A stretch of 64,000 nt of DNA, taken from positions 35,266,969 to 35,330,968 of the forward strand of contig CM038468.1 of the NCBI GenBank assembly GCA_021464415.1. Direction: 5' to 3'. Below are positions 1 to 49,953 of the stretch, one piece after another. The stretch comes from Lonicera japonica. Lineage: Eukaryota > Streptophyta > Magnoliopsida > Dipsacales > Caprifoliaceae. A program made the translations under genes and the position numbers. Numbering within the stretch: position 1 is the first letter of the stretch; each line of letters starts with the position of its first letter. The notes beneath the pieces were generated by a model. It saw nothing but the letters and a program-made list of their open reading frames with translations. It made no database searches and had not been told where the DNA came from.

Positions 1-2115
1 CCCTTAAACTTGGATGATGTGCTTGTATGGATGCATGTATATATGATGTTGAATATTGAAATAGAAATGTGCTTGTATCTATGTATTTATGTGATTGGGG
101 GTTTCGAGGTTGTTGTTGTGGGTTGGGGGTTTTGGTGGTTGGTGATTTCAGTGGTGGTTTGGAGGTTTCGGTGGTGGCACTTGGGTGGTGGTTTGGGGAT
201 TTTAGTCGTGGTTTGGGACTTTTCTCTATGTAAGGGTTTAGAAAGCGTTTGTATAGATTATGACGGTGTAGGTGTATGGCGGTGTAGCCATTTTGATGGC
301 GGCAGGGGGTGAAATTTATTTTGGAGCGAATTTTGGTTGTAGATCTGTATAACTTGTGAAATAGTGATATTTTATATAATTTTGAGCCAAAGTTTTAGTG
401 GTCCCTCGGTAATGATAAAATCTGTATGCTTTCAAAATTGCGTAAGGAAAAGAGGTCGGATGCTTTCTAGAATAAAATTCATATTAAAATCAACTGAACC
501 ATTTTAAAAGTAATAAAATTTTACATTTAAGCAATTGGTTCAGAATTTTTTTTTCCTTCAATCAGAGGTGTTTAGCATTGGTTTAGATATGATTTTTTAA
601 TTATTAAGAACATATTTTTAGTACATGTCTTAAATTTTGTTTACCTAAAATATATTATCATAAATTTATAATGAAGGGTGCCACCTGTATGAGTAGTTTT
701 GTACTTCAAATTGATGTGTTTTAATACTTAAATTGGGATATATTTCTAGGATTGTGTTGAAATGCTATAACAATAAAGTTTATAAACATGTTAATTTTTG
801 GATTATTATGTATTTTTTGGATTATAAACATGTTATACCCTATTGGACCCCTTTAAGTTTTTTCCTATAAATAAAATTTATAACTTTCTAGGTTTAAACA
901 TATAAATAAAACCTTAATTTTGCATACAATGAGATTTATCAGTATATAAATATGAAGAAAACAATACATAACAATTACGGGTCTTTATTAGTTAAGTTAT
1001 CTTGATTTCATTTTTATATTAATTATTTTTAAGTGAAAAAAAAATATAGATTTCTATTATGTTTCAAAACCCCAAATTTAAAATTATGAACCTTCCCTTG
1101 CATGTTCACGGGTTGGTATGCATTCAATACAAAATCAATTACCTTCCATTTCCCCAGATACATCCTCTAATAATTGAAGAGGAGAATTGGAGAATCTTTT
1201 TATAGATAAGGATGGGTGCTTAAATTATTAATTTTTGGGTGCTTCTACCAACACTCAAACAAAAGAACAGCTATATGGAATTTTTTTATTTTTTTCAATT
1301 ATTAGGGGAAAAAAAAGAACATTTTTTTTGTTTTAAATATTTTTGTTTGGTTTTCTATAACATCTATATGGAGTTTTTAATTTCTCTTAATTTTTCAAGA
1401 ATAATGTTTAAAAATCATATCAAACTAAAACCTTAATTAAGTATAGATGTAGTATTCACATTAACAAATTAAACCATTTTAGTAAGTATGCATTAATTTT
1501 TTTTAAATTATAAATTAGCCTTCATGTTTAAACGTAATATCAAATTGTATTTATGTTTTATTTTTCGTAGAAATGTCTTTAAACTTTGATTCCAATTCCG
1601 GAACATCATGATCATATGTCATCTATTTTTTGGAGAGGCTACTACAATTTGAGTGTCATGGACGTCGAAGATTCTTTTGTTGAAGGGCATAGACATGGAG
1701 AGGGAAAAAAATAGAAGAAATACCACTGCTAGTACAAGCACTGCGTGAAATTAATTAAGTGTGCAAGGAATAAAATATATTAGCATGTCTTTTTTACTTG
1801 TGAGAGTCAGTTTTATGTAATTTGTTTAATTAGGTGGTGTAGAATTGCCTCTAACATTGTTATGTATCTTTTTTGTATATGTACGGGTAAAATAACTTGT
1901 TTATTGACTATGTATGAATGCAAAATTAGTGATTACCCATAGAAAATGTAATGCGATAATATCTATCAATTTGTTTTATTAATGAATGGTTATCTATTTG
2001 CATTCTTAACATAGGTGTTGAAATGTTTTTCCTTTTTTTTTAAATTATGTACACATGTACTAGTAAATATGTAATTTTTGTTACATATTTTCTAATGAAC
2101 ACGTACATGAAACAG
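1..2115 (+). other. 5' UTR intron of the MULE PMD gene (3' part)
   Basis: There is no convincing coding sequence. The block is AT-rich, with a G/T-rich stretch at 90-330. In copy 2 the corresponding sequence starts at a donor CAG|GTAAAC (40201/40202) behind a C/T-rich leader. Here it ends at an acceptor GAAACAG (AG at 2114-2115), 10 bp before the first ATG of the PMD frame. I therefore read it as one ~2.1-kb leader intron. Small open frames inside it, such as 10-312, are unlikely to be genes. Confidence 0.6.
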
Positions 2116-2125
2116 GTTTTGCTCG

Positions 2126-4671
2126 ATGGATCCTGGTCCTGAGGATCGGCGTGTATTATATTTACAGGAGCATCATAGGTCGTCCGCTATATGGGACGGC
2201 CATGATCCTGCTTTGTTGGAGGCACGTAGGAGTGCTACTGAGTTTACTGGGCCTGATGGACAGCATATTATCCTTCCTGAGAGGGTACAGCGTGTATTAC
2301 TACGAGCTGGCTTTTACGGGTTGTACCGCATAGGTCACATCCAGTACGATCACGCACTCATTACGGCTATGGTAGAGCGATGGCGGCAAGAAACGCACAC
2401 GTTTCATCTACCAGTTGGGGAGTGCAGTATCACACTCCAGGATGTCGCCGTACTGATTGGATTACCAATCGATGGCCTTGCAGTTACTGGCCCTCCATTG
2501 GATGCCCCTCCGACCGATATTTGCGAGCGTGTACTGGGCATCTGACCACCAGACCACGCTTTTAGGAGATCGAAGTTGAAGCTTTCTTGGGTTGCCGATA
2601 CATTTGGAGAGGTACCTGCTCATGATGCCGACGACGTTGTTATTGAGCGATACGCACGTGCGTGGATTATTAAATCGCTCGGCGGTTCTGTTTTGGCTGA
2701 CAGGTCATCGGCATATGTCAAAGTTTCTTTACTCCCACTACTTCAAGATTTAAATACAGTGGGCCATTATAGCTGGGGTAGTGCCGCACTTGCCATGTTG
2801 TACAGGGAGATGTGTCGAGCCACGCATATAAAATCAAAGCAAGTTGCCGGTCCACTAGTGTTGTTACAGGTATATGTTTAGGCTAAATTTTGCAACTTTT
2901 TATCTTATATTTTGAATTTATATGTTCAATAATATATTGTGATTTAATTTTTGTTAGTTATGGTGTTGGGAGAGATTGACACATATTCGCCCTTGTCGGC
3001 TCGATATAGCTATTGTTGAGGACGAGCTCATTCATTCGATTGATAGACCACCACACGGAGCTAGGTTTGTTGATTTGTAACAAGACTATTCTCAATATAT
3101 TATACGCTTCGATATTTTTAATACCCTTCATTTATTTAATAAAGGTGGCGGACGAGGTTCTCACTAGACCGGACACCGATACATGTTTTGACTCATTATA
3201 GGGACCAGCTAGATCTTATGTGGGCGGAGCAGGTAAATCTAATTACTACGTATGATTTAATTACTCTCAGTGTGGTGTATATGGTATTGAAGAAGCTAGA
3301 CTGTTGTGTGACTATAAGATAAATAGCCATTGATTGATTGAGAAAACTATATTTGTCTTTTTGAATAAGTTTGAGATAATTATATATAAATTCCTTTTGG
3401 ATTGATTGGGAGATGAATTTGTTTGGAAACTTTTTATAAACTTGTTAAATAGGTCAATATGAAAAAAATGGATTGATCTAAAAACAGACGGAACTCTGCT
3501 GAAATTTCAAAAAATTATAAATTTATTGTTTAGACACATATAAATGTCTTGATATAATTTTTCAAACCTATTAGTTATACTTAATCATTTTACAGATGAT
3601 CTGGCAGCCGTATACTGCACATGTTATAGCTGGTTTGTCGCCTTATTGTCTAGCCGGTCAGGCTATATGGCGCAGCCGGTCACCCCTTATCTACTTTGAG
3701 ATTGTGGAGTGGCACCTCCCAGACAGAATGATGCGCCAGTTTGGTTTACAACAAAATATCCCTGCTGTTTTTGACATAAGTGAGCAGTTACACGATACGG
3801 ATATGAGGGGGAGGGGGCGCGGAGATCCCGTTGATTGGAGGCATCAGCACCACGATTTTATCGCTTTTTGGGATCGTAGACTCGAGCACGTAGTCACTGT
3901 GGATGTGTTACAGGGGCCGATTCAGTATGACCACCCGTATATGATTTGGTTTCACACTATCACTCGACGTTTCATACTTGCGGCACCGGAGCAGCCGCCC
4001 GAGTTTGGTCCTGAGCCAGTAGGAGTCATGTTGGAGATACTAGTAAGTTAGAATTGCATCCGTGAAATGTAATTTTGAAATTGTACATGAACTTTAATTT
4101 TAAATTTATATAATTTTTTTCTTCTCCACGGGGATGCACTTGCTAGGATATATACATTGGCTATGAACCATCCTTTGCGGTCGATCACAGGAGATTCTAC
4201 ATCCGAGGAGATATCTAACTTTGCTCATACAGCTCTTGTTACGGCGTGACAGGAGTTTCGATTATCTGTTGATCCATTTCAGGTCCATAACCCTATACCT
4301 GACCCAATCCCACGACTCTATCACCGTCGTCGTTAGAGGCGGCAAGCTACTGCTACTAGCAGTAGTACCAGTACGTCTTCAGCACAGCTCCCTACATTAG
4401 CACATGATGCTGGTCCGTCTACCTCTACACAGCATATCTCATCCCCCACCACCACCACCACTACTACTACTAGTACGTTACCCACCACTACTACTATGTT
4501 ATTTCCCTATGATCCCCTCAGCTTACCAGATAGCAGTACGTTACCCACCCCCACCAGCACGTTACCCACCCCCGCCACCATTACTATTACATCTGTGTTT
4601 TCTTCTCCATTGTCCCCCAGCATATCACAGTCAGATATTTTATCTTCCGCACCTGACCCCACCACTACTTG

Positions 4672-4708
<37 letters not shown>

Positions 4709-4845
4709 GCTACTACTACTACTACTAGTACGTTACCCACCTCTGCCATTACTACTACTACTACATCTGTGATTTCTTCTCCATTGCCCCCCGTCATATC
4801 ACAGTCAGATACGTTATCTTCCGCACCTGACCCCACCACTACTTG

Positions 4846-4882
<37 letters not shown>

Positions 4883-5405
4883 GCTGCTGCTGCTACTACT
4901 AGTACGTTACCCACCTCCACCATTACTACTACTACATCTGTGATTTCTTCTCCATTGCCCCCTGTCATATCACAGTCAGATACGTTATCTTCCCCACCAC
5001 CAGCCAGCTTACCGCAGCTGAGTACGACAGACTTCTCTTCACTCCCTACTATATACGAGGACTTTGACATATATAGGACAGTATGTGTCTATATTGACGA
5101 CAGACTCGTCATTTATTTCACCAGTTGTGTCGCATCAGCTTTCACTCGGACATTCGCAGTCGCCACCGACACTTACACCCACGTATCATGATGACATAGT
5201 GACACAGCTGGGCATACCAGATGTTGTAAATGTACCTGTGGTACCTATCGATATAGGTCGAGGGAGAGGGAGAGGTAGACCGAGGGGTAGGGGTAAGGGT
5301 AAGGACAGGGGCAGAGGTCAGGGTGTAGAGGCACACACCCATACAGAGATGGAGAGGGATGAGAGGCCGAAGAGGAAGAGGAAACAACGTAGTTGTGGTA
5401 CTTAG
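2126..5405 (+). pseudogene. Plant mobile domain (PMD, aminotransferase-like) gene carried by the MULE, damaged
   Basis: The exons I can place are 2116-2869, 2958-3064, 3145-3232, 3596-4042 and about 4130-5405, with GT-AG junctions for the first three introns. The joined frame has PMD hallmarks: GLYRIGHIQYD, then FHLPVGECSITLQDV and IGLPIDG, then ERYARAWI, LADRS, LLPLLQDL, ALAMLYREMCRAT and GPLVLLQ, followed by WERLTHIRPCRLD. The tail after about 4340 is very Thr/Ser/Pro-rich and ends in an Arg/Gly-rich, basic KRKRKQRS segment, plausibly nuclear. PMD proteins such as Arabidopsis MAIN/MAIL1 act in transcription and silencing; the role of transposon versions is unknown. Damage: in-frame stops at 2543-2545, about 4246 and about 4336, a frame change near 5000-5100, and no AG acceptor before 4130. 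Family call strong; activity doubtful. Confidence 0.85.
4601..5000 (+). repeat. In-frame tandem repeat with ACT microsatellites (Thr-rich tail)
   Basis: A unit beginning TCTTCTCCATTG recurs at 4601, 4775 and 4946 (periods of 174 and 171 bp, 58 and 57 codons). Each unit encodes roughly SSPLPPVISQSDTLSS followed by a poly-Thr run made of ACT triplets. Unit lengths are multiples of three, so the frame survives. The Thr runs differ slightly in copy 2, as expected for an unstable triplet repeat or for consensus error. Confidence 0.85.
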
Positions 5406-5455
5406 TAGGTTGATTATTAGTTATTAGACAAAAAATGTATTTTCATTACCCATAA

Positions 5456-5551
5456 ATGTTTTGGTTGTACATGTGTATTTATTTTGCTTACTTGTATGAT
5501 TTAATGTTTTGGTTGTACATGTGTATTTATTTTGCTTACTTGTATGATTTA
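5456..5551. repeat. 48-bp perfect tandem duplication between the convergent genes
   Basis: Two head-to-tail copies of a 48-bp unit (5456-5503 and 5504-5551), starting ATGTTTTGGTTGTACATG, lie just after the PMD stop codon in the ~420-bp spacer separating the 3' ends of the two MULE genes. It is probably in 3' UTR. The duplication is also in copy 2 (about 45593-45680) with small indels. Confidence 0.85.
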
Positions 5552-5823
5552 ATGTGTACATATCAAAGATAAAAATATAACTATGAGGGGGCAAAAAATG
5601 TGTCTATAAGAAACATTATACATTAAATTAATTAAACAAAGATCAAGGTTACAACATTGCGCATTAAGCAAAATAATATATTACAACTACTGTACAAAGT
5701 CAAGCATACAACTAGAAAATATTATACATTAAATAGTGTAAAAATAAACTAATAGCCAGAAATCTGCTACATTATCAAATAATAAAGTCATACTGCATAT
5801 CTAATTGTGGGCCAATGCAACAA

Positions 5824-8364
5824 TTATTTAACTTGATTTCGAGGACACTTGCGGCGATCATGTCCCACCTCTCCACAAGTCCCGCAATGGTTGTATCTTC
5901 GACGATCACTGACGTCCATCTCGTTATGAATGCACCTAGATGGACGACCCTTTTGACGCAATAAGTTTGGATTAGGAATCAAAACACCTGGAATTGTACT
6001 AACCAAAAGGGTATCCCAGTAATCTTTTGTCAAAGCAGGATGCAAAGTGGGAGAATATGTACCCACATACGCCTCAAGAGTCAAGTGTTGATGAATTAAG
6101 TATTTCGGTTCTAATCTTAATTCAGCACACACCGCCAATACATGTTTACAAGGATACTTATAAATTTGCCACCTCCCGCAGCTGCACGTGCCTTCCATAA
6201 TGTTTACATTCTTAACATTTCCTTTGGCTGATGTGACAGAGGCAAGTCCCTCTGAGTTGTTATGCCTAAAAACAATATACTTGCCGATATCCTTCATGCG
6301 ATTCGATAATTTCAGTGCCATGAATGGCGTGTGTTCCACCTCTGAATTGTCAAGCCTATCTTTACCCTGTTCGCCTCTTTCACAAAAGTACGTAACAAGG
6401 TGATAAAAAATGAGCTGCACCGACGCAGTAATAGGCAATGATCTCGCACCAATTAAAACTCCATTGAAAACCTCTGAGATATTTGTTGTCTTTATCCCAT
6501 AACGATGCTCTCCATCATGAACAAAAATCCACTTTTCTAGGGGAATTTGTTTTAGCCACCTCCATGGTTTTTTTCCTTCGCTCTCTTCTTCATTATCATA
6601 CTCTTTGATCCTGTCCATATACTTATTGAATTTTGGCAAGCAGTAAGTAGTTGCAGCCTTCCACATTAGTATCTTTAAAGTCTCGTCTGGTTTACATTTA
6701 CTTGTAAAGTTACTGCGGACATGTCGCATACAAAACCGATGGTCTGTCATTGGCTCTTGAAATTGTGGGTCAGAATTAATTACAGACAGTATGCCCTTGT
6801 GCCGATCAGAAATCAAGAAAATTCCATCTCGTCCCCTTACCACGTAATGCCAAAGACGCGTGAGAAAAAAGTTCCATGTGTCATGACTTTCCTCATCGCC
6901 GAATCCAAATGCAAGAGAAAATATTCCTTTATTTGCATCCATAGCCATTGCAACAAATAATTTTCCATTGTACTTGCCACGTAAATGTGTCGCGTCTACA
7001 CTTATAACAGGTTGGCAATGCATAAAGCCTTCAATGGGCGCACTAAAGGCCCAAAAGTTCTTATCAAAAATATGATAATGGCCATCATACATCTTGCTTC
7101 TATACTCGTGGACGGTGCGTTGATTGTTGTATTTAATTCCTGCCAAATATCTCGGCATAATAGCATAAGACTCTTTCCAATCGCCAAATAATATTTCAAT
7201 AGCCTTCTGCTTCGCACTCCATGCCTTCCAATAAGAAATCTTGTAACCATATTGATCCTTAACAAATGCGACGATAACACCAATCTTAAGGCCAGGGTCA
7301 ACCTTAACCATGTGCTTTACTCTGCTTGCAATGAATTTGCAGTCCAAATGTTTATGAGTTAGTTTCAAACGATTAAATGTGCATGTGTGAAGACCCTCGT
7401 ACTTGGTTATCTCAAACTGGCCATGTTTCTTCTTCCTCTTACAAGCACGCAGTCGCCATTTGCACCTTCTTTCTTGCAATTTACACTTTATTGCCCATGT
7501 ATCTGCCTTTGATTCATCAATAATAAATTCACATGAATTCTTAATTGCATATTGTTTCACGGCAATCTTCAACTTATCTTTAGTCTCGTAAATGGGCCCA
7601 TTCTGTAATTCATTTTGATCTACCAACTGTTCATTAATTGTCACCTCCTGATCCACATACGTAACAGGATATTGTGTGTACCATGATGGTATGTCTTCCG
7701 CAACCACCTCAATTTGGTTTGATTGTTCACATTCATCGCTTTCAGTGTCACTCCTTTCTGTACGACTGTTAGATTCCGAGTTCCAATCCGTATCCTCTCC
7801 AGTGGAGTCATCATATTCTATACCATCTCCGTACTCAAACATTGGGTGTTCCGGTATGTAATTCTTAGGGGTATGGCCGTGTGACTCAGGAGAAAATTCA
7901 AGCTTTTTTGATGGCCGTGAAGTAGAAGGCAAGTTAGAAACATTAGTGTATTGTGTAGGTGGTGGTGAAGTATATGACACCGAGGCTGGAAATTTTTCAG
8001 CAAGTGGGAGCACACCATAATTCAAATTAACTTTCTCCACATACAAATCGATTGCATTCATAGAGGGAACATTTAAAATTATTCCCATTACAAAATGTAA
8101 GCTTATGTCATCATTAATTTTATGGAGGAAGAAACTACAAACATTCATGGTCACAAACAGTGGACATCTACATACAATCTTTAAGGTGGACGGTGAGAGG
8201 TCGACATTCATAACAGAATAAATCATTCCAACTAATTCCGAGTACGTCGTACCTTCTTTAACGATAATTCCTGTTTTATGTTGCATATTGTAACATTGTC
8301 CATGCTCTCTATTAATAATTTCTCCGCCCCAGTATAAAAGCATAAATACTTGTCTGTTCGTCAT
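5824..8364 (-). CDS. MURA-like MULE transposase, intact (846 aa from the ATG at 8364)
   Basis: It catalyses cut-and-paste transposition of this MULE in the nucleus. The reading frame is uninterrupted. Order: a variable acidic N-terminus (~1-250); MuDR-type DNA-binding domain (~255-330, ending YEGLHTCTF); MULE DDE domain with D457 (ISVDATHLRG), D520 (LISDRHKGI), a Cys/His motif (FCMRHVRSNF) and candidate third acid E631 (NISEVFNG); SWIM zinc finger C727-C729-C739-H741 (CSCGRWQ...YPCKHV); C-terminal CCHC knuckle C827-C830-H835-C840 (CGTCGEVGHDRRKC). Length is typical of MURA proteins. I chose the ATG at 8364 because it lies 3 bp after a likely acceptor (GAAG|GTAATG); the frame runs 4 codons further upstream without an ATG. 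The gene is probably driven from the right terminal repeat. Confidence 0.95.
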   Translation of the reverse strand: MTNRQVFMLLYWGGEIINREHGQCYNMQHKTGIIVKEGTTYSELVGMIYSVMNVDLSPSTLKIVCRCPLFVTMNVCSFFLHKINDDISLHFVMGIILNVPSMNAIDLYVEKVNLNYGVLPLAEKFPASVSYTSPPPTQYTNVSNLPSTSRPSKKLEFSPESHGHTPKNYIPEHPMFEYGDGIEYDDSTGEDTDWNSESNSRTERSDTESDECEQSNQIEVVAEDIPSWYTQYPVTYVDQEVTINEQLVDQNELQNGPIYETKDKLKIAVKQYAIKNSCEFIIDESKADTWAIKCKLQERRCKWRLRACKRKKKHGQFEITKYEGLHTCTFNRLKLTHKHLDCKFIASRVKHMVKVDPGLKIGVIVAFVKDQYGYKISYWKAWSAKQKAIEILFGDWKESYAIMPRYLAGIKYNNQRTVHEYRSKMYDGHYHIFDKNFWAFSAPIEGFMHCQPVISVDATHLRGKYNGKLFVAMAMDANKGIFSLAFGFGDEESHDTWNFFLTRLWHYVVRGRDGIFLISDRHKGILSVINSDPQFQEPMTDHRFCMRHVRSNFTSKCKPDETLKILMWKAATTYCLPKFNKYMDRIKEYDNEEESEGKKPWRWLKQIPLEKWIFVHDGEHRYGIKTTNISEVFNGVLIGARSLPITASVQLIFYHLVTYFCERGEQGKDRLDNSEVEHTPFMALKLSNRMKDIGKYIVFRHNNSEGLASVTSAKGNVKNVNIMEGTCSCGRWQIYKYPCKHVLAVCAELRLEPKYLIHQHLTLEAYVGTYSPTLHPALTKDYWDTLLVSTIPGVLIPNPNLLRQKGRPSRCIHNEMDVSDRRRYNHCGTCGEVGHDRRKCPRNQVK

Positions 8365-8367
8365 TAC

Positions 8368-9530
8368 CTTCAACACAATTAAAGAAATTTATCATCAACT
8401 GATAATAAATACAATTTACTTAAACTAATCAAGCATGCCCTCCATTATGATGGTAAATAATACATTTTTTAAAATAAAATATAATTTCTCAAAAAATAAA
8501 TAAGTATATACATTCTTCAAAATAGGGGTATAATTATTGAAAAATCAAAATTACGTATCAACCCCTACGAAATATTAGATTAAAGTATTTACTTAAAATC
8601 ATAAAATCAATTTTTGCAAATAAAAAAATATGGTTAACCACTACGAATATAATTACTTGAACTTGGGCCCATTTTTTTCTTTGTTTAATTTATATTTTAC
8701 CCACCTGTTTTGAAAAAATAGGAAATGACCCAAAACTTCGGATAATCACTAATTTCTTGTTTTTATTTTTCCTAAAATACCCTTAGTTGACTTTACAAGT
8801 AAACAATTTAATTATCCCTAAGATTTAGATTATAGCTAACTTTTGAATTTTTAAATCTATTAATATCCAAAATTCCAAAATAAACATCCACTTATTTAGG
8901 GAACTTTCAAAAATATTATAACAAAAATCATAAATCGTATTACTTGGGCTAAACACATATTTTCTATATCACAATAATATGATAATAAATCTACAAATTT
9001 ACAATAATTCATACATTCGCAAATCTACAAATCTATATTTCAATCCTAGATCTAGAAACAATCTAACAAATCTATATCACAAATTTATAATAATATCCCA
9101 TTTATTTCATTCATATAATTATTATGCAAGTATAGATGTACAAATAATCAAAATATATAAATTTACAAATAAACAAAAATTATAGATCTAAGCATAATCA
9201 AAATACTATAAATGGACATACCTATTTTTGTTGAAGTAGAGAGAAATTCTTATGCATCAATGATCTTCTCAACTTTTTTTTTTTCGTATTTTAAATTGTG
9301 AAAAAGATGGAGAGAAGAAGGGGAAGAAAAGTAAGAAGAGCAAGAACAAGTATACATATGAAGTAATATACGATACAATAAAAATTATATAAGGAATTTA
9401 GAAGACTTCATCAACTTCACAGAAGAAGAGCAAGAAGAAAGAAGAAAAGCAACAAGAAACAGAAGAAGATGAAGATCAAGGAAAAATAAAGAGGAAGACG
9501 GCGCACTGAAATATTATGAGTAGGGTGTGG
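8368..9530 (-). other. 5' leader exon and 854-bp 5' UTR intron of the transposase gene
   Basis: On the minus strand a pyrimidine-rich leader (~9530-9222, GAAGAAGAG-type purine tracts on +) ends at the donor AATAG|GTATGTCC (intron from 9221). A GAAG acceptor at 8368 lies directly before the transposase ATG. The intron itself is very AT-rich. This mirrors the other MULE gene: C/T-rich leader next to the terminal repeat, then a 5' UTR intron. The exact transcription start cannot be seen. Confidence 0.5.
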
Positions 9531-9618
9531 TGGAAATTAACTAAAAAACGCGAAAAGCAATTGCGATTTCAAAAAAAAAACCTGCATTAAAAATGTGGTT
9601 TGTGATATCGATTTTAAG

Positions 9619-9848
9619 GGTAAAATTAATGTTCAGAGTAGCGTTTTTAGAGGTAAAAACGCAGTACCTAGTCGCGTTTTTACTGCAAATTTTTATTTTT
9701 TTTTGTAAAACCGCTACTATGAATTGTTTAAGGGAAAAACGCGACTTCAAACCTCGATTTTAAAACACCTCTATTTCCCCAATTAAGTTCAAAAGTCCCC
9801 TATTTAGCAAAATAAGTTTAAAAAGAATCATAGTTTGAAAAAAAAGTC
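9619..9848. repeat. Right terminal inverted repeat of MULE copy 1
   Basis: The reverse complement of this segment aligns with 39668-39860: both begin GACTTTTTTT, continue CAAACTATGATTCTT, share AATCGAGGTTTGAAGTCGCG, and end near GAACATTAATTTTACCC. The right repeat has an extra ~35 bp relative to the left. It contains inverted GCGTTTTT/AAAAACGC blocks able to fold into a short hairpin. Confidence 0.88.
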
Positions 9849-9857
9849 ACATTTTAT
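9849..9857. repeat. 9-bp target site duplication, right side (ACATTTTAT)
   Basis: ACATTTTAT follows the element end directly. The same nine bases precede the left end at 39659-39667 and follow the right end of copy 2 at 49945-49953. The left partner of copy 1 is outside the window. Confidence 0.85.
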
Positions 9858-28991: not shown

Positions 28992-30285
28992 TGTGAACAC
29001 CCCAATCCACGACTCTCATATGAATACTGGTTTTTTTATAAAACGAGCATCTTGCATCTAGTCCTGGGTCATCATGCATATGGAAGACTGATAGGAAAGC
29101 CTCCAATTTCGGACTCGTGGGAGTCTGATATGACCATTGTTGCCTCTTCACTTACTAGGACGGGGATCGACCTGCCTGGTTAGGTCGCGGGGTGCGGGGC
29201 AGCGCTCGGTTAGAAAATTCGAGTTTTTTTGTGTGTTTCTGGGCATTTTTGTGAGCCAACAGCAGCCCCTAACCATACGGTTGGCACCCAGCTATAGCCC
29301 CCAACCGCACGGCTACCTACCACCCGTACGGCTGGACCGCACGCCCCAACCGCAGGTCCCAGCCGCACCCTTGTGGCTGGCCTCTTTTGGAGCATTTTTT
29401 GCTGAAATTTTCCTATAAATAGGACCTTTGGGCTCTCATTTGGGATCATCAACACTCACTAATGTTTTTAGTAAGGTGAAATTCTATCAAAATAATTAAA
29501 GAGTCTTTTCTTTTAGTGAATTTCTAGGGAAAGAGAAAGTTAGTGAGAGAAGGCTTTAGAGAGAGAATTCTAGAGAGAGAAAGTCCTAGAGAGAGAAGGA
29601 AGCAAGCAAGGCAATCAAGGCAAGGTTCTCATTTCTTCTTCAAGCGCATTAGGTACGTCTTTCTACAACCTTTTTGAATTTTAATACTGCATTTAAATAT
29701 CAGTTTTAATTCAAAAAATTAGAGAACTTGCAAAGAAGTTCACTATTTTCTGAATTAGTCCTTTCTAAGTTTTACAAGAAATCTAAAATCCGTTTTGACA
29801 CGTTTTCAAAAATAAAACAAAAACACAAAAACAGTTTCCAAACAAATGGAACTACGAGACTCTGATTTCATTCTACGAATGAATACGTAGGCGCTCGCAA
29901 AGCTGGAGTCTAATTTTAAAATACTGTTTTAAACTAAATTTATCCAAAAGGACTATTCTGAAAGTAATTTAAACTACTTGCAAGATATCTAAAATAGGAA
30001 TTAAATACATAATCCATTAAGAGACCGAAAGGGCGAATTGGGTGCCTAACACCTTCCAAATTCGTAACGTAGTTCCCGAACCCTAGCAAAAATAATTTTC
30101 AACCAATCTCTGGTATCGAACGTATGAAAGATAATTTGTTTTCAAATTGTCCTTGGTACGATCTTTTATTTGTTTTCTCATAAAAAGAACTGGCAACTCT
30201 ACAAAACACGTTTTCCTTCAAAATAAAGAAAACCGAGAGAACGAGGATTTCCCTCTCTCGGGGATCAGAGGTCCGGATTCTCACA
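28992..30285 (+). repeat. 3' LTR of element C
   Basis: 1294 bp, TGTGAACACC...TTCTCACA, matching 14306-15606 with numerous substitutions and small indels. It has the GTACGG array (~29270-29395) and TTTTCCTATAAATAGG (TATA from 29414). CGCAT follows at 30286-30290. Confidence 0.95.
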
Positions 30286-39392: not shown

Positions 39393-39492
39393 NNNNNNNN
39401 NNNNNNNNNNNNNNNNNNNNNNNNNNNNNNNNNNNNNNNNNNNNNNNNNNNNNNNNNNNNNNNNNNNNNNNNNNNNNNNNNNNNNNNNNNNN
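39393..39492. other. Assembly gap of exactly 100 N
   Basis: 100 consecutive N, the usual placeholder for a scaffold join of unknown size. The duplicated sequence begins right after it. Confidence 0.99.
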
Positions 39493-39667: not shown

Positions 39668-39860
39668 GACTTTTTTTTCAAACTATGATTCTTTAAAACT
39701 TATTTTGCTAAATAGGAACTTTTGATTGTAATTGGGAAAATAGAATGTTTTAAAATCGAGGTTTGAAGTCGCGTTTTTTCCCTTAAAAATTGCAAGAAAA
39801 ACACGACCAGGTACTGCGTTTTACCTCTAAAAACGCTGATCTGAACATTAATTTTACCCC
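39668..39860. repeat. Left terminal inverted repeat of the MULE
   Basis: Matches the reverse complement of 49717-49944 and 9619-9848 over about 193 bp, with a ~35-bp stretch missing relative to the right repeat. It includes AATCGAGGTTTGAAGTCGCG and GCGTTTT/AAAACGC inverted words. Confidence 0.9.
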
Positions 39861-39939
39861 TAAAAAAAAAATTCCTCATAAAACCGCAATCCAAGATGCG
39901 TTTTTACCTTCAAAACCGCACTCCCTTTTCTTGTTTTTA

Positions 39940-40201
39940 CAATTTTTCAAAATTCCCAAACCCATTTCAAGTCTCCATCTCCGGTGTGAATCACTTCCGC
40001 TATCCTTCCCGCTCCGTCTCCATATCTCCACAGCTCCATCTCATATTTCCACAGCTACACGCACCTCCTTCCTCCGCTATCCTCCATCTCCGCTATACAC
40101 GCTCTTCCTTCCTCTTATCCTCCATACACGACCCACCTTCCTCCATCTCGGCTATCCCCGTCGGCGTCGGCGTCGGCGTCAGCGTCGGCGCCGTCCTCCA
40201 G
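39940..40201 (+). other. C/T-rich 5' leader exon of the MULE PMD gene
   Basis: A pyrimidine-rich block (CTCCATCTCC-type) with a GTCGGC hexamer run at ~40160-40190, ending in the donor CTCCAG|GTAAAC. It lies just inside the left terminal repeat, as expected if that repeat supplies the promoter. Confidence 0.5.
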
Positions 40202-42297
40202 GTAAACAATACTCTCCCTTAAACTTGGATGATGTGCTTGTATGGATGCATGTATATATGATGTTGAATATTGAAATAGAAATGTGCTTGTATCTATGTA
40301 TTTATGTGATTGGGGGTTTCGAGGTTTTGTTGTGGGTGTTTTGGTGGTTGGTGATTTCATGTGGTGTTGGTGGGTTCGGTGTGGCACTGGGTGGTGTTTG
40401 GGGATTTTAGTCGTGGTTTGGACTTTTCTCTATGTAAGGTTTAGAAAGCGTTTGTATAGATTATGACGGTGTAGGTGTATGGCGGTGTAGCCATTTGATG
40501 GCGGCAGGGGTGAAATTTATTTTGGAGCGAATTTTGTTGTAATCTGTATAACTTGTGAAATAGTGATATTTTATATAATTTTGAGCCAAAGTTTTAGTGG
40601 TCCCTCGGTAAAGATAAAATCTGTATGCTTTCAAAATTGCGTAAGGAAAAGAGTCGATGCTTTCTAGAATAAAATTCATATTAAAATCAACTGAACCATT
40701 TTAAAAGTAATAAAATTTTACATTTAAGCAATTGGTTTCAGAATTTTTTTTTCCTTCAATCAGAGGTGTTTAGCATTGGTTTAGATATGATTTTTTTAAT
40801 TATTAAGAACTATTATTTAGTACATGTCTTAAATTTTGTTTACCTAAAATATATTATCATAAATTTATAATGAAGGGTGCCACCTGTATGAGTAGTTTTG
40901 TACTTCAAATTGATGTGTTTTAATACTTAAATTGGGATATATTTCTAGGATTGTGTTGAATGCTATAACAATAAAGTTTATAAACATGTTAATTTTTGGA
41001 TTATTATGTATTTTTTGGATTATAAACATGTTATACCTATTGGACCCCTTTAAGTTTTTTCCTATAAATAAAATTTATAACTTTCTAGGTTTAAAACATA
41101 TAAATAAAACCTTAATTTTGCATACAATGAATTTATCAGTATATAAATATGAAGAAAACAATACATAACAATTACGGGCTTTATTAGTTAAGTTATCTTG
41201 ATTTCATTTTTAATATTATTTATTTTTAAGTAAAAAAAATATAGATTTCTATTATGTTTCAAAACCCCAAATTTAAAATTATGAACCTCCCCTTGCATGT
41301 TCACGGGTTGTATGCATTCAATACAAAATCAATTACCTTCCATTTCCCAGATACATCCTCTTAATAATTGAAGAGGAGAATTGGAGAATCTTTTTATAGA
41401 TAAGGATGGGTGCTTAAATTATTAATTTTTGGGTGCTTCTACCACACTCAAACAAAAGAACAGCTATATGGAATTTTTTTATTTTTTTCAATTATTAGGG
41501 GAAAAAAAAGAACATTTTTTTTGTTTTAAATATTTTTGTTTGGTTTTCTATAACATCTATATGGAGTTTTTAATTTCTCTTAATTTTTCAAGAATAATGT
41601 TTAAAAATCATATCAAACTAAAACCTTAATTAAGTATAGATGTAGTATTCACATTAACAAATTAAACCATTTTAGTAAGTATGCATTAATTTTTTTTAAA
41701 TTATAAATTAGCCTTCATGTTTAAACGTAATATCAAATTGTATTTATGTTTTATTTTTCGTAGAAATGTCTTTAAACTTTGATTCCAATCCGGAACATCA
41801 TGATCATATGTCATCTATTTTTGGAGAGGCTACTACAATTTGAGTGTCATGGACGTCGAAGATTCTTTGTTGAAGGGCATAGACATGGAGAGGAAAAAAA
41901 TAGAAGAAATACCACTGCTAGTACAGCACTGCGTGAAATTATTTAAAGTGTGCAAGGAATAAAATATATTAGCATGTCTTTTTACTTGTGAGAGTCAGTT
42001 TTATGTAATTTGTTTAATTAGTGTTAGAATTGCTCTAACATTGTTATGTATCTTTTTGTATATGTACGGTAAAATAACTTGTTTATTGACTATGTATGAA
42101 TGCAAAATTAGTGATTACCCATAGAAAATGTAATGCGATAATATCTATCAATTTGTTTTATTAATGAATGGTTATCTATTTGCATTCTTAACATAGGTGT
42201 TGAAATGTTTTTCCTTTTTTTTTTAATTATGTACACATGTACTAGTAAATATGTAATTTTTGTTACATATTTTCTAATGAACACGTACATGAAACAG
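40202..42297 (+). other. 5' UTR intron of the MULE PMD gene, copy 2
   Basis: 2096 bp from GTAAAC (40202) to GAAACAG (42297), 10 bp before the first ATG. Not coding. Confidence 0.6.
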
Positions 42298-42307
42298 GTT
42301 TTGCTCG

Positions 42308-44808
42308 ATGGATCCTGGTCCTAGGATCGGCGTGTATTATATTTACAGGAGCATCATAGGTCGTCCGCTATTGGGACGGCCATGATCCTGCTTTGTTGGA
42401 GGCACGTAGAGTGCTACTGAGTTTACTGGGCCTGATGGACAGCATATTATCCTTCCTGAGAGGGTACAGCGTGTATTACTACGAGCTGGCTTTTACGGGT
42501 TGTACCGCATAGGTCACATCCAGTACGATCACGCACTCATTACGGCTATGGTAAGCGATGGCGGCAAGAAACGCACACGTTCATCTACCAGTTGCGGAGT
42601 GCAGTATCACACTCCAGGATGTCGCCGTACTGATTGGATTACCAATCGATGGCCTTGCAGTTACTGGCCCTCCATTGGATGCCCCTCCGACCGATATTTG
42701 CGAGCGTGTACTGGGCATCTGACCACCAGACCACGCTTTTAGGAGATCGAAGTTGAAGCTTTCTTGTTGCCGATACATTTGGAGAGGTACCTGCTCATGA
42801 TGCCGACGACGTTGTTATTGAGCGATACGCACGTGCGTTTATTAAATCGCTCGCGGTTCTGTTTGGCTGACAGGTCATCGGCATATGTCAAAGTTTCTTT
42901 ACTCCCACTACTTCAAGATTTAAATACAGTGGGCCATTATAGCTGTAGTGCCGCACTTGCCATGTTGTACAGGGAATGTGTCGAGCCACATATAAAATCA
43001 AAGCAAGTTTGCCGTCCACTAGTGTTGTTACAGGTATATTTTAGGCTAAATTTTGCAACTTTTATCTTATATTTTGAATTTATATGTTCAATAATATATT
43101 GTGATTTAATTTTTGTTAGTTATGGTGTTGGAGAGATTGACACATATTCGCCTTGTCGGCTCGATATAGCTATGTTGAGGACGAGCTCATTCATTCGATT
43201 GATAGACCACCACACGAGCTAGGTTTGTTGATTTGTAACAAGACTATCTCAATATATTATACGCTTCGATATTTTTAATACCCTTCATTTATTTAATAAA
43301 GGTGGCGGACGAGGTTCTCACTAGACCGACACCGATACATGTTTTGACTCATTATAGGGAACAGCTAGATCTTATGTGGGCGGAGCAGGTAAATCTAATT
43401 ACTACTATATAATTACTCTCAGTGGTGTATATGGTATTGAAGAAGCTAGACTGTTGTGACTATAAGATAAATAGCCATTGATTGATTGAGAAAACTATAT
43501 TTGTCTTTTGAATAAGTTTGAGATAATTATATATAAATTCCTTTTGGATTGATTGGGAATGAATTTGTTTGGAAACTTTATATACTTGTTAAATAGGTCA
43601 ATATGAAAAAAATGGATTGATCTAAAAACAGACGGAACTCTGCTGAAATTTCAAAAAATTATAAATTTATTGTTTAGACACATATAAATGTCTTGATATA
43701 ATTTTTCAAACCTATTAGTTATACTTAATCATTTTACAGATGATCTGGCAGCCGTATACTGCACATGTTATAGCTGGTTGTCGCCTTATTGTCTACCGGT
43801 CAGGCTATATGGCGCAGCCGGTCACCCTTATCTACTTTGAGATTGTGGAGTGGCCACCTCCCAGACAGAATGATGCGCCAGTTTGGTTTACAACAAAATA
43901 TCCCCTGCTGTTTTTGACATAAGTGAGCAGTTACACGATACGGATATGAGGGGAGGGGCGCGGAGATCCGTTGAATGGAGGCATCACACCACGATTTTTA
44001 TCGCTTTTTGGGATCGTAGACTCGAGCACGTAGTCACTGTGGATGTGTTACAGGGGCCGATTCAGTATGACCACCCGTATATGATTTGGTTTCACACTAT
44101 CACTCGACGTTTCATACTTGCGGCACCGGAGCAGCCGCCCGAGTTTGGTCCTGAGCCAGTAGGAGTCATGTTGGAGATACTATAAGTTAGAATTGCATCC
44201 GTGAAATGTAATTTTGAAATTGTACATGAACTTTAATTTTAAATTTATATAATTTTTTTCTTCTCCACGGGGATGCACTTGCTAGGATATATACATTGGC
44301 TATGAACCATCCTTTGCGGTCGATCACAGGAGATTCTACATCCGAGGAGATATCTAACTTTTGCTCATACTCTCTTGTTACGGCGTGACAGGAGTTTCGA
44401 TTATCTGTTGATCCATTTCAGGTCCATAACCCTATACCTGACCCAATCCCACGACTCATCACCGTCGTCGTTAGAGGCGGCAAGCTACTGCTACTAGCAG
44501 TAGTACCAGTACGTCTTCAGCACAGCTCCCTACATTAGCACATGATGCTGGTCCGTCTACCTCTACACAGCATATCTCATCCCCCACCACCACCACCACT
44601 ACTACTACTAGTACGTTACCCACCACTACTACTATGTTATTTCCCTATGATCCCCTCAGCTTACCAGATAGCAGTACGTTACCCACCCCCACCACACGTT
44701 ACCCACCCCCGCCACCATTACTATTACATCTGTGTTTTCTTCTCCATTGTCCCCCAGCATATCACAGTCAGATATTTTATCTTCCGCACCTGACCCCACC
44801 ACTACTTG

Positions 44809-44845
<37 letters not shown>

Positions 44846-44980
44846 GCTACAACTACTACTAAGTACGTTACCCACCTCTGCCATTACTACTACTACTACA
44901 TCTGTGATTTCTTCTCCATTGCCCCCCGTCATATCACAGTCAGATACGTTATCTTCCGCACCTGACCCCACCACTACTTG

Positions 44981-45017
<37 letters not shown>

Positions 45018-45534
45018 GCTGCTGCTGCTACTACTAGTACGTTACCCACCTCCACCATTACTACTACTACATCTGTGATTTCTTCTCCATTGCCCCCTGT
45101 CATATCACAGTCAGATACGTTATCTTCCCCACCACCAGCCAGCTTACCGCAGCTGAGTACGACAGACTTCTCTTCACTCCCTACTATATAGAGGACTTTG
45201 ACATATATAGGACAGTATGTGTCTATATTGACGACAGACTCGTCATTTTTTCACCAGTTGTGTCGCATCAGCTTTCACTCGGACATTCGCAGTCGCCACC
45301 GACACTTACACCCACGTATCATGATGACATAGTGACACAGCTGGGCATACCAATGTTGTAAATGTACCTGTGGTACCTATCGATATAGGTCGAGGGAGAG
45401 GGGAGAGTTAGACCGAGGGGTAGGTTAAGGGTAAGGACAGGGGCAGAGGTCAGGGTGTAGAGGCACACACCCATACAGAGATGGAGAGGGATGAGAGGCC
45501 GAAGAGAAAGAAACAACGTAGTTGTGGTACTTAG
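42308..45534 (+). pseudogene. MULE PMD gene, copy 2, frame-shifted
   Basis: Same exon order as 2126-5405. Extra 1-bp deletions break it further (for example CCTAGGATCGG for CCTGAGGATCGG near 42323, and GTTGGAGAG for GTTGGGAGAG near 43130). The stop at LGI and the lost acceptor before the last exon are shared with copy 1, so they are true features, whereas the private indels are doubtful. Function and domains as for copy 1. Confidence 0.8.
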
Positions 45535-45949
45535 TAGGTTGATTATTAGTTATTAGACAAAAAATGTATTTTCATTACCCATAAATGTTTGGTTTGTACA
45601 TGTGTATTTATTTTGCTTACTTGTATATTTAATGTTTTGGTTGTACATGTGTATTTATTTTGCTTACTTGTATGATTTATGTGTACATATCAAAGATAAA
45701 AAAAATATAACATGAGGGCAAAAAATGTGTCTATAAGAAACATTATACATTAAATTAATTAAACAAAGATCAAGGTTACAACATTGCGCATTAAGCAAAA
45801 TAATATATTACAACTACTGTACAAAGTCAAGCATACAACTAGAAAATATTATACATTATATAGTGTAAAAATAAACTAATAGCCAGAAATCTGCTACATT
45901 ATCAAATAATAAAGTCATACTGCATATCTAATTGTGGGCAATGCAACAA

Positions 45950-48476
45950 TTATTTAACTTGATTTCGAGGACACTTGCGGCGATCATGTCCCCCCTCTCC
46001 ACAAGTCCCCCAATGGTTTATCTTCGACGATCACTGACGTCCATCTCGTTATGAATGCACCTAGATGGACGACCCTTTTGACGCAATAAGTTTGGATTAG
46101 GAATCAAAACACCTGGAATTGTATTAACCAAAAGGGTATCCCAGTAATCTTTTGTCAAAGCAGGATGCAAAGTGGGAGAATATGTACCCACATACGCCTC
46201 AAGAGTCAAGTGTTGATGAATTAAGTATTTCGGTTCTAATCTTAATTCAGCACACACCGCCAATTACATGTTTACAAGGATACTTATAAATTTGCCACCT
46301 CCCGCAGCTGCACGTGCCTTCCATAATGTTTACATTCTTAACATTTCCTTTGGCTGATGTGACAGAGGCAAGTCCCTCTGAGTTTTTATGCCTAAAAACA
46401 ATATACTTGCCGATATCCTTCATGCGATTCGATAATTTCAGTGCCATGAATGGCGTGTGTTCCACTCTGAATTGTCAAGCTATCTTTACCCTGTTCGCCT
46501 CTTTCACAAAAGTACGTAACAAGTGATAAAAAATGAGCTGCACCGACGCAGTAATAGGCAATGATCTCGCACCAATTAAAACTCCATTGAAAACCTCTGA
46601 GATATTTGTTGTCTTTATCCCATAACGATGCTCTCCATCATGAACAAAAATCCACTTTTCTAGGGGAATTTGTTTTAGCCACCTCCATGGTTTTTTTCCT
46701 TCGCTCTCTTCTTCATTATCATACTCTTTGATCCTGTCCATATACTTATTGAATTTGGCAAGCAGTAAGTAGTTGCAGCCTTCCACATTAGTATCTTTAA
46801 AGTCTCGTCTGGTTTACATTTACTTGTAAAGTTACTGCGGAACATGTCGCATACAAAACCGATGGTCTGTCATTGGCTCTTGAAATTGTGGGTCAGAATT
46901 AATTACAGACAGTATGCCCTTGTGCCGATCAGAAATCAAGAAATTCCATCTCGTCCCTTACCACGTAATGCCAAAGACGCGTGAGAAAAAAGTTCCATGT
47001 GTCATGACTTCCTCATCGCCGAATCCAAATGCAAGAGAAAATATTCCTTTATTTGCATCCATAGCCATTGCAACAAATAATTTTCCATTGTACTTGCCAC
47101 GTAAATGTGTCGCGTCTACACTTATAACAGGTTGGCAATGCATAAAGCCTTCAATGGCGCACTAAAGGCCCAAAAGTTCTTATCAAAAAATGATAATGGC
47201 CATCATACATCTTGCTTCTATACTCGTGGACGGTGCGTTGATTGTTTGTATTTAATTCCTGCCAAATATCTCGGCATAATAGCATAAGACTCTTTCCAAT
47301 CGCCAAATAATATTTCAATAGCCTTCTGCTTCGCACTCCATGCCTTCCAATAAGAAATCTTGTAACCATATTGATCCTTAACAAATGCACGATAACACCA
47401 ATCTTAGGCCAGGTCAACCTTAACCATGTGCTTTACTCTGCTTGCAATGAATTTGCAGTCCAAATGTTTATGAGTTAGTTTCAAACGATTAAATGTGCAT
47501 GTGTGAAGACCCTCGTACTTGGTTATCTCAAACTGGCCATGTTTCTTCTTCCTCTTACAAGCACGCAGTCGCCATTTGCACCTTCTTTCTTGCAATTTAC
47601 ACTTTATTGCCCATGTATCTGCCTTTGATTCATCAATAATAAATTCACATGAATTCTTAATTGCATATTGTTTTCACGCAATCTTCAACTTATCTTTAGT
47701 CTCGTAAATGGCCCATTCTGTAATTCATTTTGATCTACCAACTGTTCATTAATTGTCACCTCCTGATCCACATACGTAACAGGAATATTGTGTGTACCAA
47801 TGGTATGTCTTCCGCAACCACCTCAATTTGGTTTGATTGTTCACATTCATCGCTTTCAGTGTCACTCCTTTCTGTACGACTGTTAGATTCCGAGTTCCAA
47901 TCCGTATCCTCTCCCAGTGGAGTCATCATATTCTATACCATCTCCGTACTCAAACATTGGGTGTTCCGGTATGTAATTCTTAGGGGTATGGCCGTGTGAC
48001 TCAGGAAAAATTCAAGCTTTTTTGATGGCCGTGAAGTAGAAGGCAAGTTAGAAACATTAGTGTATTGTGTAGGTGGTGGTGAAGTATATGACACCGAGGC
48101 TGGAAATTTTTCAGCAAGTGGGAGCACACCATAATTCAAATTAACTTTCTCCACATACAAATCGATTGCATTCATAGAGGAAATGTTAAATTAAAATTAA
48201 CCCTTACAAAATGTAAGCTATGTCATCATTAATTTTATGGAGGAAGAAACTACAACATTCATGGTCACAAACAGTGGACATCTACATACAATCTTTAAGG
48301 TGGACGGTGAGAGGTCGACATTCATAACAGAATAAATCATTCCAACTAATTCCGATACGTCGTACCTTCTTTAACGATAATTCCTGTTTTATGTTGCATA
48401 TTGTAACATTGTCCATGCTCTCTATTAATAATTTCTCCGCCCCAGTATAAAAGCATAAATACTTTCTGTTCGTCAT
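45950..48476 (-). pseudogene. MURA-like transposase, copy 2, frame-shifted
   Basis: Equivalent of the intact gene at 5824-8364, broken into pieces by single-base indels (for example near 46017, 46264, 46758, 47157, 47400 and 47690). The catalytic motifs and SWIM finger are recognisable. Because the intact version exists in the same window and the losses are mainly 1-bp deletions, I suspect assembly error more than decay. Confidence 0.85.
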
Positions 48477-49716
48477 TCCTTCAACACAATTAAAGAAATT
48501 TATCATCAACTGATAATAAATACAATTTACTTAAACTAATCAAGCATGCCCTCCATTATGATGGTAAATAATACATTTTTTAAAATAAAATATAATTTCT
48601 CAAAAAATAAATAAGTATATACATTCTTCAAAATAGGGGTATAATTATTGAAAAATCTAAATTACGTATCAACCCTACGAAATATTAGATTTAAGTATTT
48701 ACTTAAAATCATAAAATCAATTTTTGCAAATAAAAAAATATGTTAACCACTACGAATATAATTACTTGAACTTGGGCCCTTTTTTTCTTTGTTTAATTTA
48801 TATTTTCCCACCTGTTTTGAAAAAATAGGAAATGACCCAAAACTTCGGATAATCACTAATTTCTTGTTTTTATTTTTCCTAAAATACCCTTATTTGACTT
48901 TACAAGTAAACAATTTAATTATCCCTAAGATTTAGATTATAGCTAACTTTTGAATTTTTAAATCTATTAATATCCAAAATTCCAAAATAAACATCCACTT
49001 ATTTGGGAACTTTCAAAAATATTATAACAAAAATCATAAATCGTATTACTTGGCTAAACACATATTTTCTATATCACAATAATATGATAATAAATCTACA
49101 AATTTACAATAATTCATACATTCGCAAATCTACAAATCATATTTCAATCCTAGATCTAGAAACAATCTAACAAATCTATATCACAAATTTATAATAATAT
49201 CCCATTTATTTCATTCATAAAATTATTATGCAAGTATAGATGTACAAATAATCAAAATATATAAATTTACAAATAAACAAAAATTTATAGATTAAGCATA
49301 ATCAAAATACTATAAATGGACATACCTATTTTTGTTGAAGTAGAGAGAAATTCTTATGCATCAATGATCTTCTCAACTTTTTTTTTTTCGTATTTTTAAA
49401 TTGTGAAAAATGGAGAGAAGAAGGGAAGAAAAGTAAAAGAGCAAGAACAAGTATACATATGAAGTAATATACGATACAATAAAAATTATATAAGAATTTA
49501 GAAGACTTCATCAACTTCACAGAAGAAGAGCAAGAAGAAAGAAGAAAGCAACAAGAAACAGAAGAAGATGAAGATCAAGGAAAATAAAGAGGAAGACGGC
49601 GCACTGAAATTATTTGAGTAGGGTGTGGTGGAAATTAACTAAAAAACGCGAAAAGCAATTGCGATTTCAAAAAAAAAACCTGCATTAAAAATGTGGTTTG
49701 TGATATCGATTTTAAG

Positions 49717-49944
49717 GGTAAAATTAATGTTCAGAGTAGCGTTTTTAGAGGTAAAAACGCAGTACCTAGTCGCGTTTTTACTGCAAATTTTTATTTTTTT
49801 TTGTAAAACCGCTACTATGATTTGTTTAAGGGAAAAACGCGACTTCAAACCTCGATTTTAAAACACCTCTATTTCCCCAATTATTCAAAAGTCCCCTATT
49901 TAGCAAAATAAGTTTAAAAAGAATCATAGTTTGAAAAAAAAGTC
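49717..49944. repeat. Right terminal inverted repeat of MULE copy 2
   Basis: Nearly identical to 9619-9848 and inverted relative to 39668-39860. Confidence 0.9.
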
Positions 49945-49953
49945 ACATTTTAT
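49945..49953. repeat. 9-bp target site duplication, right side, copy 2
   Basis: ACATTTTAT, matching 39659-39667 exactly. Confidence 0.92.

What the first reader, a model, noticed from the sequence alone, without database searches (positions are those of the whole stretch)
39668..49944. MULE with a PMD gene in the place of the second MuDR gene
The element has perfect 9-bp target duplications, ~200-bp terminal repeats and two convergent genes: a MURA-like transposase and a PMD protein. In maize MuDR the second convergent gene is mudrB, needed for somatic behaviour of the element. Here a PMD gene with a Thr-rich and RG-rich tail holds that position. PMD host proteins (MAIN/MAIL1) act in silencing and gene expression, so a transposon-borne version could be an anti-silencing or helper factor. 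Structure is read from sequence; role is inference.
Basis: partly seen in the sequence, partly recalled or inferred. Interest (0 to 1): 0.85.

Follow-up and report, generated by a model that had tools for sequence, protein, structure and literature searches.

The report
Plant transposon carrying VANC-like PMD gene
A plant jumping gene carries, besides its transposase, a second conserved gene whose predicted relatives fold like a known anti-silencing protein of other jumping genes, and its ends hold neat arrays of one short DNA word that such a protein could bind.

The parts
39668..49944 (+). MULE, the finding's copy (copy B): error-rich contig-end copy of the same insertion as window 1-9848
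   Evidence: TSDs and ends; 195 private changes, 119 of them 1-5 bp indels; contig overlap
39659..39667 (.). left target-site duplication acattttat
   Evidence: read
49945..49953 (.). right target-site duplication acattttat
   Evidence: read
39668..39865 (+). left terminal inverted repeat
49709..49944 (-). right terminal inverted repeat
39771..39905 (.). left AAAAACGC/GCGTTTTT motif cluster (exact copies at 39771-, 39829+, 39898-)
   Evidence: enrichment in the other copies; spacing
49642..49840 (.). right AAAAACGC/GCGTTTTT motif cluster (exact copies at 49642+, 49739-, 49753+, 49772-, 49833+)
42308..43033 (+). PMD exon 1 of copy B (frame broken mainly by changes private to B)
   Evidence: Pfam PMD E 2e-6 on a fragment
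43120..43222 (+). PMD exon 2 of copy B
43302..43388 (+). PMD exon 3 of copy B
43740..44182 (+). PMD exon 4 of copy B
44269..45534 (+). PMD exon 5 of copy B: Thr-rich, RG-rich tail ending in a basic RPKRKRK-like stretch
45953..48476 (-). MURA-like transposase of copy B (25 broken codons, 1 stop)
1..9848 (+). copy A of the same insertion (first 558 bp lie left of the window); right target duplication at 9849-9857
5827..8364 (-). open 846-aa transposase of copy A: MULE, SWIM and DBD_Tnp_Mut domains, C-terminal CCHC-like knuckle (by eye)
2126..5405 (+). PMD gene of copy A, exons 2126-2869, 2958-3064, 3145-3232, 3596-4042, 4130-5405 (1 stop in exons 1-4, 2 in the part of the tail compared, AG before exon 5 lost)
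9544..9742 (.). right motif array of copy A (9544+, 9641-, 9655+, 9674-, 9735+)
39393..39492 (.). 100-N gap: the scaffold join that creates the false duplication

Best explanation
The element belongs to a TIR-bearing MULE lineage, with recently active sister families, that encodes two conserved proteins from convergent genes: a MURA-type transposase and a PMD protein. The PMD protein most likely works like VANC of VANDAL MULEs: a sequence-specific DNA-binding protein that reads a short word in the element's own non-coding ends, here most likely the AAAAACGC dyad array, and there opposes silencing so that the element's genes are expressed. Shown here by computation: the two-gene structure, purifying selection on PMD between related loci, co-occurrence with transposase, the VANC21-like fold of two PMD relatives, the ordered motif arrays. 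Inferred: that this PMD binds DNA, that AAAAACGC is its site, that the outcome is loss of methylation. The four copies of this very family that I read are decayed (each PMD has a stop).
Confidence: 0.5

Rival explanations
1. The AAAAACGC dyads are transposase sites, and the PMD protein acts on the host side: it joins or poisons the MAIN/MAIL1/PP7L complex, weakening host silencing genome-wide.
For: Host PMD proteins form a silencing complex with PP7L (passages) and TE-borne PMDs have been proposed as counter-silencing factors. Transposases bind TIRs (general knowledge). Motif and transposase are conserved together too.
Against: The VANC21 match points to direct DNA contact. Dyads at 14/19 bp, with 15 copies of the word in one sister-family end, look more like a regulatory array than a transposase end. 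Element PMDs form their own clade (100/100) and are 22-24% identical to the intron-free PMD loci L033-L036, but I did not establish which loci are this host's MAIN and MAIL1.
Confidence: 0.25
2. PMD is a MURB-like helper needed for integration or germinal transposition, unrelated to silencing.
For: Same convergent position as mudrB in MuDR; MURB is reported as needed for insertion (passage). PMD is kept by selection like the transposase.
Against: No comparison with MURB was made. The fold match is to an anti-silencing DNA-binding protein.
Confidence: 0.15
3. PMD is a captured passenger gene without function (Pack-MULE-like transduplication).
For: MULEs capture genes; within the family PMD dN/dS does not exclude 1 (0.44-1.35) and every copy read has a stop.
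Against: dN/dS 0.12-0.16 against 12 of 13 related loci, 0 indels in exons 1-4, 32 of 32 listed pairs convergent, 15 of them without a stop in either searched stretch.
Confidence: 0.03

Closest known systems
MUDR / MUDRAVI2 / MDR / MULE-Monocots groups of MULEs with a PMD ORF (Dupeyron et al. 2019, PMC6446971, Table 1 rows seen as a passage)
   Same: 9-bp TSD, long TIRs, SWIM-type MULE transposase, PMD gene often in antisense to it
   Different: I did not place this family in that tree; the table rows seen give no selection test, motif or mechanism for PMD
VANDAL21 (Hiun) and its anti-silencing protein VANC21 (Hosaka 2017, PMC5735166, passages; PDB 9LNJ)
   Same: MULE with transposase plus a second protein; two PMD relatives share the fold of the DNA-bound VANC21 domain; short words repeated in non-coding parts
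   Different: Most VANDALs lack clear TIRs; VANCs carry DUF1985, which the element's PMD does not show; the word differs; function not shown here
Maize MuDR (mudrA and mudrB)
   Same: Two genes in opposite directions, long TIRs, 9-bp TSDs (partly recalled; passages)
   Different: Second gene is PMD; MURB was not compared
MULE transposase-PMD fusions in grasses and Amborella (Ikeda 2017, PMC5418596, passages)
   Same: PMD carried by MULEs; anti-silencing suggested there
   Different: Here separate convergent genes; the same genome also has a co-oriented transposase-then-PMD family
Host MAIN / MAIL1 / MAIL3 (PMD-C proteins)
   Same: PMD domain; a protein named MAIN-LIKE 1-like also models onto VANC21
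   Different: Host genes; MAIN and MAIL1 promote silencing with PP7L; not in a transposon

Membership tests
MUDR-type MULE | 9-bp target-site duplication | tested here: met
   0 mismatches in 10 of 14 two-ended rows as clipped, this element included; the other four have 3, 5, 5 and 8, of which C1:15.49 becomes perfect if its end is moved by one base (by eye)
MUDR-type MULE | long terminal inverted repeats | tested here: met
   about 200-240 bp
MUDR-type MULE | MULE transposase with SWIM finger | tested here: met
   PF10551 E 7.7e-15, PF04434 E 3.6e-11, PF03108 E 4.7e-7, all over cut-off, in copy A
Maize MuDR in the narrow sense | second gene homologous to mudrB | not tested
   no MURB sequence was compared
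PMD (PF10536) | Pfam profile over cut-off | tested here: met
   291 bits against 34.9, full profile 1-347, for the spliced C1:8.47 copy
VANC / VANDAL | DUF1985 over the Pfam cut-off | tested here: not met
   element exons 1-4: none at E<=0.1; exon 1: none at E<=10; P0103 15.1 bits against 35.1
VANC / VANDAL | fold of the VANC21 DNA-bound domain | tested here: met
VANC / VANDAL | short motif repeated in the element's own non-coding parts | tested here: met
   AAAAACGC arrays; that it is the protein's target is inferred
VANC / VANDAL | sequence-specific hypomethylation of own copies | not testable with these tools
   needs methylome data
VANC / VANDAL | absent or short degenerate TIRs (typical of VANDALs, not of every group member) | tested here: not met
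   clear TIRs, so not filed as a VANDAL
Pack-MULE (captured host gene fragment) | carried gene derived recently from a host gene of the same genome | tested here: inconclusive
   PMD loci L033-L036 only 22-24% identical and L037 33-38%; host genes were not identified and the PMD list is incomplete

The most novel reading that the evidence does not exclude
The plant mobile domain as a whole is a VANC-type DNA-reading domain. PMD-MULEs of flowering plants then carry motif-specific anti-silencing proteins like VANDALs, and the host silencing factors MAIN and MAIL1 are tamed or cousin versions of the same DNA-binding fold, which would explain their promoter 'DOWN' motif. In this element the word read is AAAAACGC in 19/14-bp dyads.
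Probability: 0.4. Interest if true: 0.88.

Novelty: new member of a known kind. Interest (0 to 1): 0.72.

Why it matters
[quoted passage not shown] The VANC21 match turns this into one concrete, testable claim, direct DNA reading by the PMD, and the element supplies a candidate target word with a fixed geometry, while related families supply copies without stops in the stretches searched. If right, motif-specific anti-silencing would reach beyond VANDALs to PMD-bearing MULEs, and a host silencing factor and a transposon anti-silencer would share one fold.

Tried and rejected

Dropped before counts: of 17 places fetched and oriented, three (C4:20.9, C1:17.5, C1:114.1) showed one end only in the stretch read and are not among the 14 two-ended rows. 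Copy B was left out of dN/dS and indel counts; codons with gaps, insertions or stops were left out of dN/dS. Contig C399 and copy B are not counted as separate sites. In the 32 pairs, rows on unplaced contigs (C155, C425, C724, C848) may be haplotigs of placed ones. From the range 0.12-0.16 is for 12 of the 13 loci L044-L048, L050, L052, L053, L055, L056, L058, L059, L061 (L045: 0.27); against the eight loci L039-L043, L049, L054, L057 PMD gives 0.09-0.17 at dS 1.3-2.0, near saturation; L037 is saturated. A transposase was seen or listed for 9 of the 13, and several of the 13 are near copies of each other. One S1 and one S2 element supplied the sister-family ends.

Full report
OBSERVATION. The finding's element spans 39668-49944, 10,277 bp, with the same 9 bp (acattttat) on either side. 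Its ends are inverted repeats of about 200 bp (left) and 236 bp (right), 77% alike over 237 columns. A PMD gene runs on the + strand and a MURA-type transposase on the - strand, meeting near 45.5-46 kb.

THE COPY IN HAND IS AN ASSEMBLY DUPLICATE. Window 1-23897 matches 40216-64000 at 98.2%. A 100-N gap sits at 39393-39492. The sequence after the gap begins inside the first copy (39493 equals C6:35266229), and the sequence before the gap ends where its own downstream copy ends (39391 equals position 79435 counted on past the window). So two contigs that overlap by about 40 kb were joined without merging. The two copies share target duplication and flanks. Where the three other full-length copies agree, the finding's copy (B) has 195 private changes and the other (A) 8; 119 of B's are indels of 1-5 bp, and 28 differences could not be assigned. 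Beyond the element the differences fade: 170 substitutions and 34 indels in 14 kb, with no substitution and 9 indels in the last 8 kb or so. B's frameshifts are thus mostly errors of a contig end. Copy A is window 1-9848, with 558 bp outside.

GENE MODELS. Copy A's transposase is one open frame of 846 aa (window 5827-8364, minus) with MULE, SWIM and DBD_Tnp_Mut domains over their cut-offs. The transposases of the three other full-length insertions have 2-4 stops. The PMD gene has five exons; splice sites were read by eye from the alignment of copies. Exons 1-4 give 462 aa that match the whole Pfam PMD profile (291 bits); exon 5 encodes the Thr-rich, RG-rich tail with a basic end. Each of the four independent copies has exactly one stop in exons 1-4, and the tails have 2, 1, 1 and 0; some splice sites are lost. 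So none of the four copies read of this very family has an unbroken PMD gene.

FAMILY. A search of the 886-Mb genome with 334 bp of the left end gave 50 matches (40 of 192 candidates scored). From these I examined 14 two-ended copies at 12 insertion sites (A and B are one site, C3:45.77 and contig C399 another). Four sites are long, 9.7-10.4 kb, with both genes and 92-94% alike over most of their length: this one, C3:83.64 Mb, C1:15.49 Mb and C1:8.47 Mb. Eight are shorter (0.6-4.9 kb) and hold neither gene complete. No site has a complete transposase gene without PMD. A further copy at C1:114.10 Mb is seen by position: terminal repeat, PMD and transposase.

LINKAGE IN THE GENOME. PF10536 gave 162 matches (117 of 4,838 candidates scored). 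The transposase gave 53 loci (53 of 3,191 candidates scored). Of these, 32 have a listed PMD within 12 kb, all 32 convergent, none divergent or co-oriented; 21 have none listed, which the incomplete PMD list does not settle. In 15 of the 32 pairs neither searched stretch holds a stop; these lie in related families (transposase 73-87% identical), not in this one. A search with the Lonicera macranthoides relative P0122 added 11 loci: 8 have PMD downstream on the same strand, 3 none listed. In a tree of 49 PMDs the convergent ones (with L. macranthoides P0001) and the co-oriented ones each form a clade (100/98 and 98/93) and together one clade (100/100). Two copies of sister family S2 (C1:114.06 and C9:72.60) are 99.8% identical over 1.1 kb at one end, hence recent; the S1 and S2 ends also show 9-bp target duplications (by eye).

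SELECTION. Within the family dN/dS is 0.54 (0.40-0.74) for transposase, 0.73 (0.44-1.35) for PMD exons 1-4 and 0.90 (0.63-1.35) for the tail: shallow, and for PMD compatible with neutrality. Indels speak more clearly: 0 in 1,386 bp of PMD exons 1-4 across four copies, against 6.8/kb in PMD introns (4 events), 10.6/kb in its leader (9) and 2.0/kb in the transposase (5). Against 13 related PMD loci (9 of them with a transposase seen or listed) dN/dS is 0.12-0.16 in 12 and 0.27 in one (L045, whose exon 4 aligns badly), at dS 0.66-0.86; the transposase gives 0.10 against L056 and 0.18-0.39 against eight loci of the co-oriented kind, the three highest (0.30, 0.39, 0.39) being those where only separate parts of the transposase were matched. 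PMD is a constrained gene of this lineage.

MECHANISM: TARGET. The ends hold AAAAACGC far above chance: 9, 11, 11 and 9 in the four copies, from which the word was picked, and 21 and 5 in one element each of sister families S1 and S2; dinucleotide shuffles average 0.17-0.44 with a maximum of 4 in 500. It occurs 0 times in the four interiors and 0 times in 29 kb of window sequence outside the element, nor in the 14 kb that repeat part of it. All 8 deletion derivatives tested keep 4-9 copies. Neighbouring copies form dyads: + to - at 19 bp 18 times and - to + at 14 bp 13 times among 54 gaps, at most 4 such gaps in any of 2,000 random placements. By family: own 13 of 32 gaps, S1 15 of 19, S2 3 of 3. 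Caveats: the spacing was noted before it was tested, the own ends share descent, and an S1 end holds an internal duplication. The outer ends of the three families differ, so the array is kept while much of the rest changes. VANC21 and VANC6 bind 8-9 bp words that are repeated in non-coding parts of their elements (Hosaka 2017, passages).

READING. The PMD gene most likely makes a VANC-like protein that reads the dyad array and opposes silencing there. Shown: structure, constraint, linkage, fold of relatives, arrays. Inferred: binding, the identity of the site, demethylation. The main rival is that the transposase reads the dyads and PMD acts on the host MAIN/MAIL1/PP7L complex. In tea, PMD genes are themselves sources and targets of phased small RNAs (abstract and passages), which fits an arms race but says nothing about this element.

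KNOWN AND NEW. Dupeyron 2019 (Table 1 rows as a passage; abstract; first part of the section) lists PMD in antisense for most of the MUDR group and PMD in several other plant groups. Ikeda 2017 (passages) reports MULE-borne PMDs as fusions, cites Babu 2006 for the first one, and suggests anti-silencing; the 2021 Cells review repeats that (passages). So the arrangement and the guess are in print. A kinship of PMD with VANC is not, as far as my searches show: of the papers held, VANC21 and 'plant mobile domain' occur together only in PMC6419827 and PMC8616336, and DUF1985 and 'plant mobile domain' in none. The review names VANC21 and PMDs as separate examples in one paragraph; of the meeting report I saw only the PMD passage. 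A 2025 talk on unpublished VANC-DNA structures is noted in another meeting report; the paper behind 9LNJ was not seen and may say more.

HOST. The record is unnamed. The nearest PMD and transposase proteins are from Lonicera macranthoides (79% and 60%), and one locus here is 95% identical to the latter over 621 residues, so a honeysuckle is likely (inference).

Noticed in passing
window 1-39392 and 39493-64000 (on to about 79435): Unmerged contig overlap of about 40 kb across an N gap: anything in 40216-64000 is a second, partly error-rich reading of 1-23897, so other findings in this window may be counted twice.
   Followed up: yes
L039-L043, L054, L057 (e.g. C2:630190-633845): A sister MULE family has transposase then PMD on the same strand; in the seven loci read, about 0.3 kb with stops lies between them.
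   Followed up: partly
L049; protein P0011 (Bauhinia variegata): Transposase N-terminus runs directly into PMD in L049, and P0011 has a PB1 match (just under cut-off) before its PMD: possible transposase-PMD fusions.
   Followed up: partly
C9:72.60 Mb and C1:114.06 Mb (L065-L068): Two copies of a sister PMD-MULE are 99.8% identical over 1.1 kb at one end and have no stops in the searched stretches: recent, perhaps current, transposition.
   Followed up: partly
C8:2656690-2673737 (L034-L036, L051) and C1:76.30 Mb (L033): PMD loci, four of them in tandem on C8, most with intron-free PMD matches, 22-24% identical to the element's PMD where compared (L033-L036); host genes or another TE-derived lineage.
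   Followed up: no
window 27806-28555: Tandem repeat with a period of about 115 bp (self-matches offset by about 115 and its multiples).
   Followed up: no
window 14306-15606 and 28992-30285: A 1.3-kb dispersed repeat, 92% identical between the two places.
   Followed up: no
C3:45.77 Mb and contig C399 (L023, L024): Same short element in opposite orientation with the same target duplication: C399 looks like a leftover haplotig.
   Followed up: no
PMD exon 5, window 4130-5405 and 44269-45534: The Thr-rich tail is built of fast-changing repeats (15 indel events among four copies, 14 of them in whole codons), unlike the rigid PMD core.
   Followed up: partly
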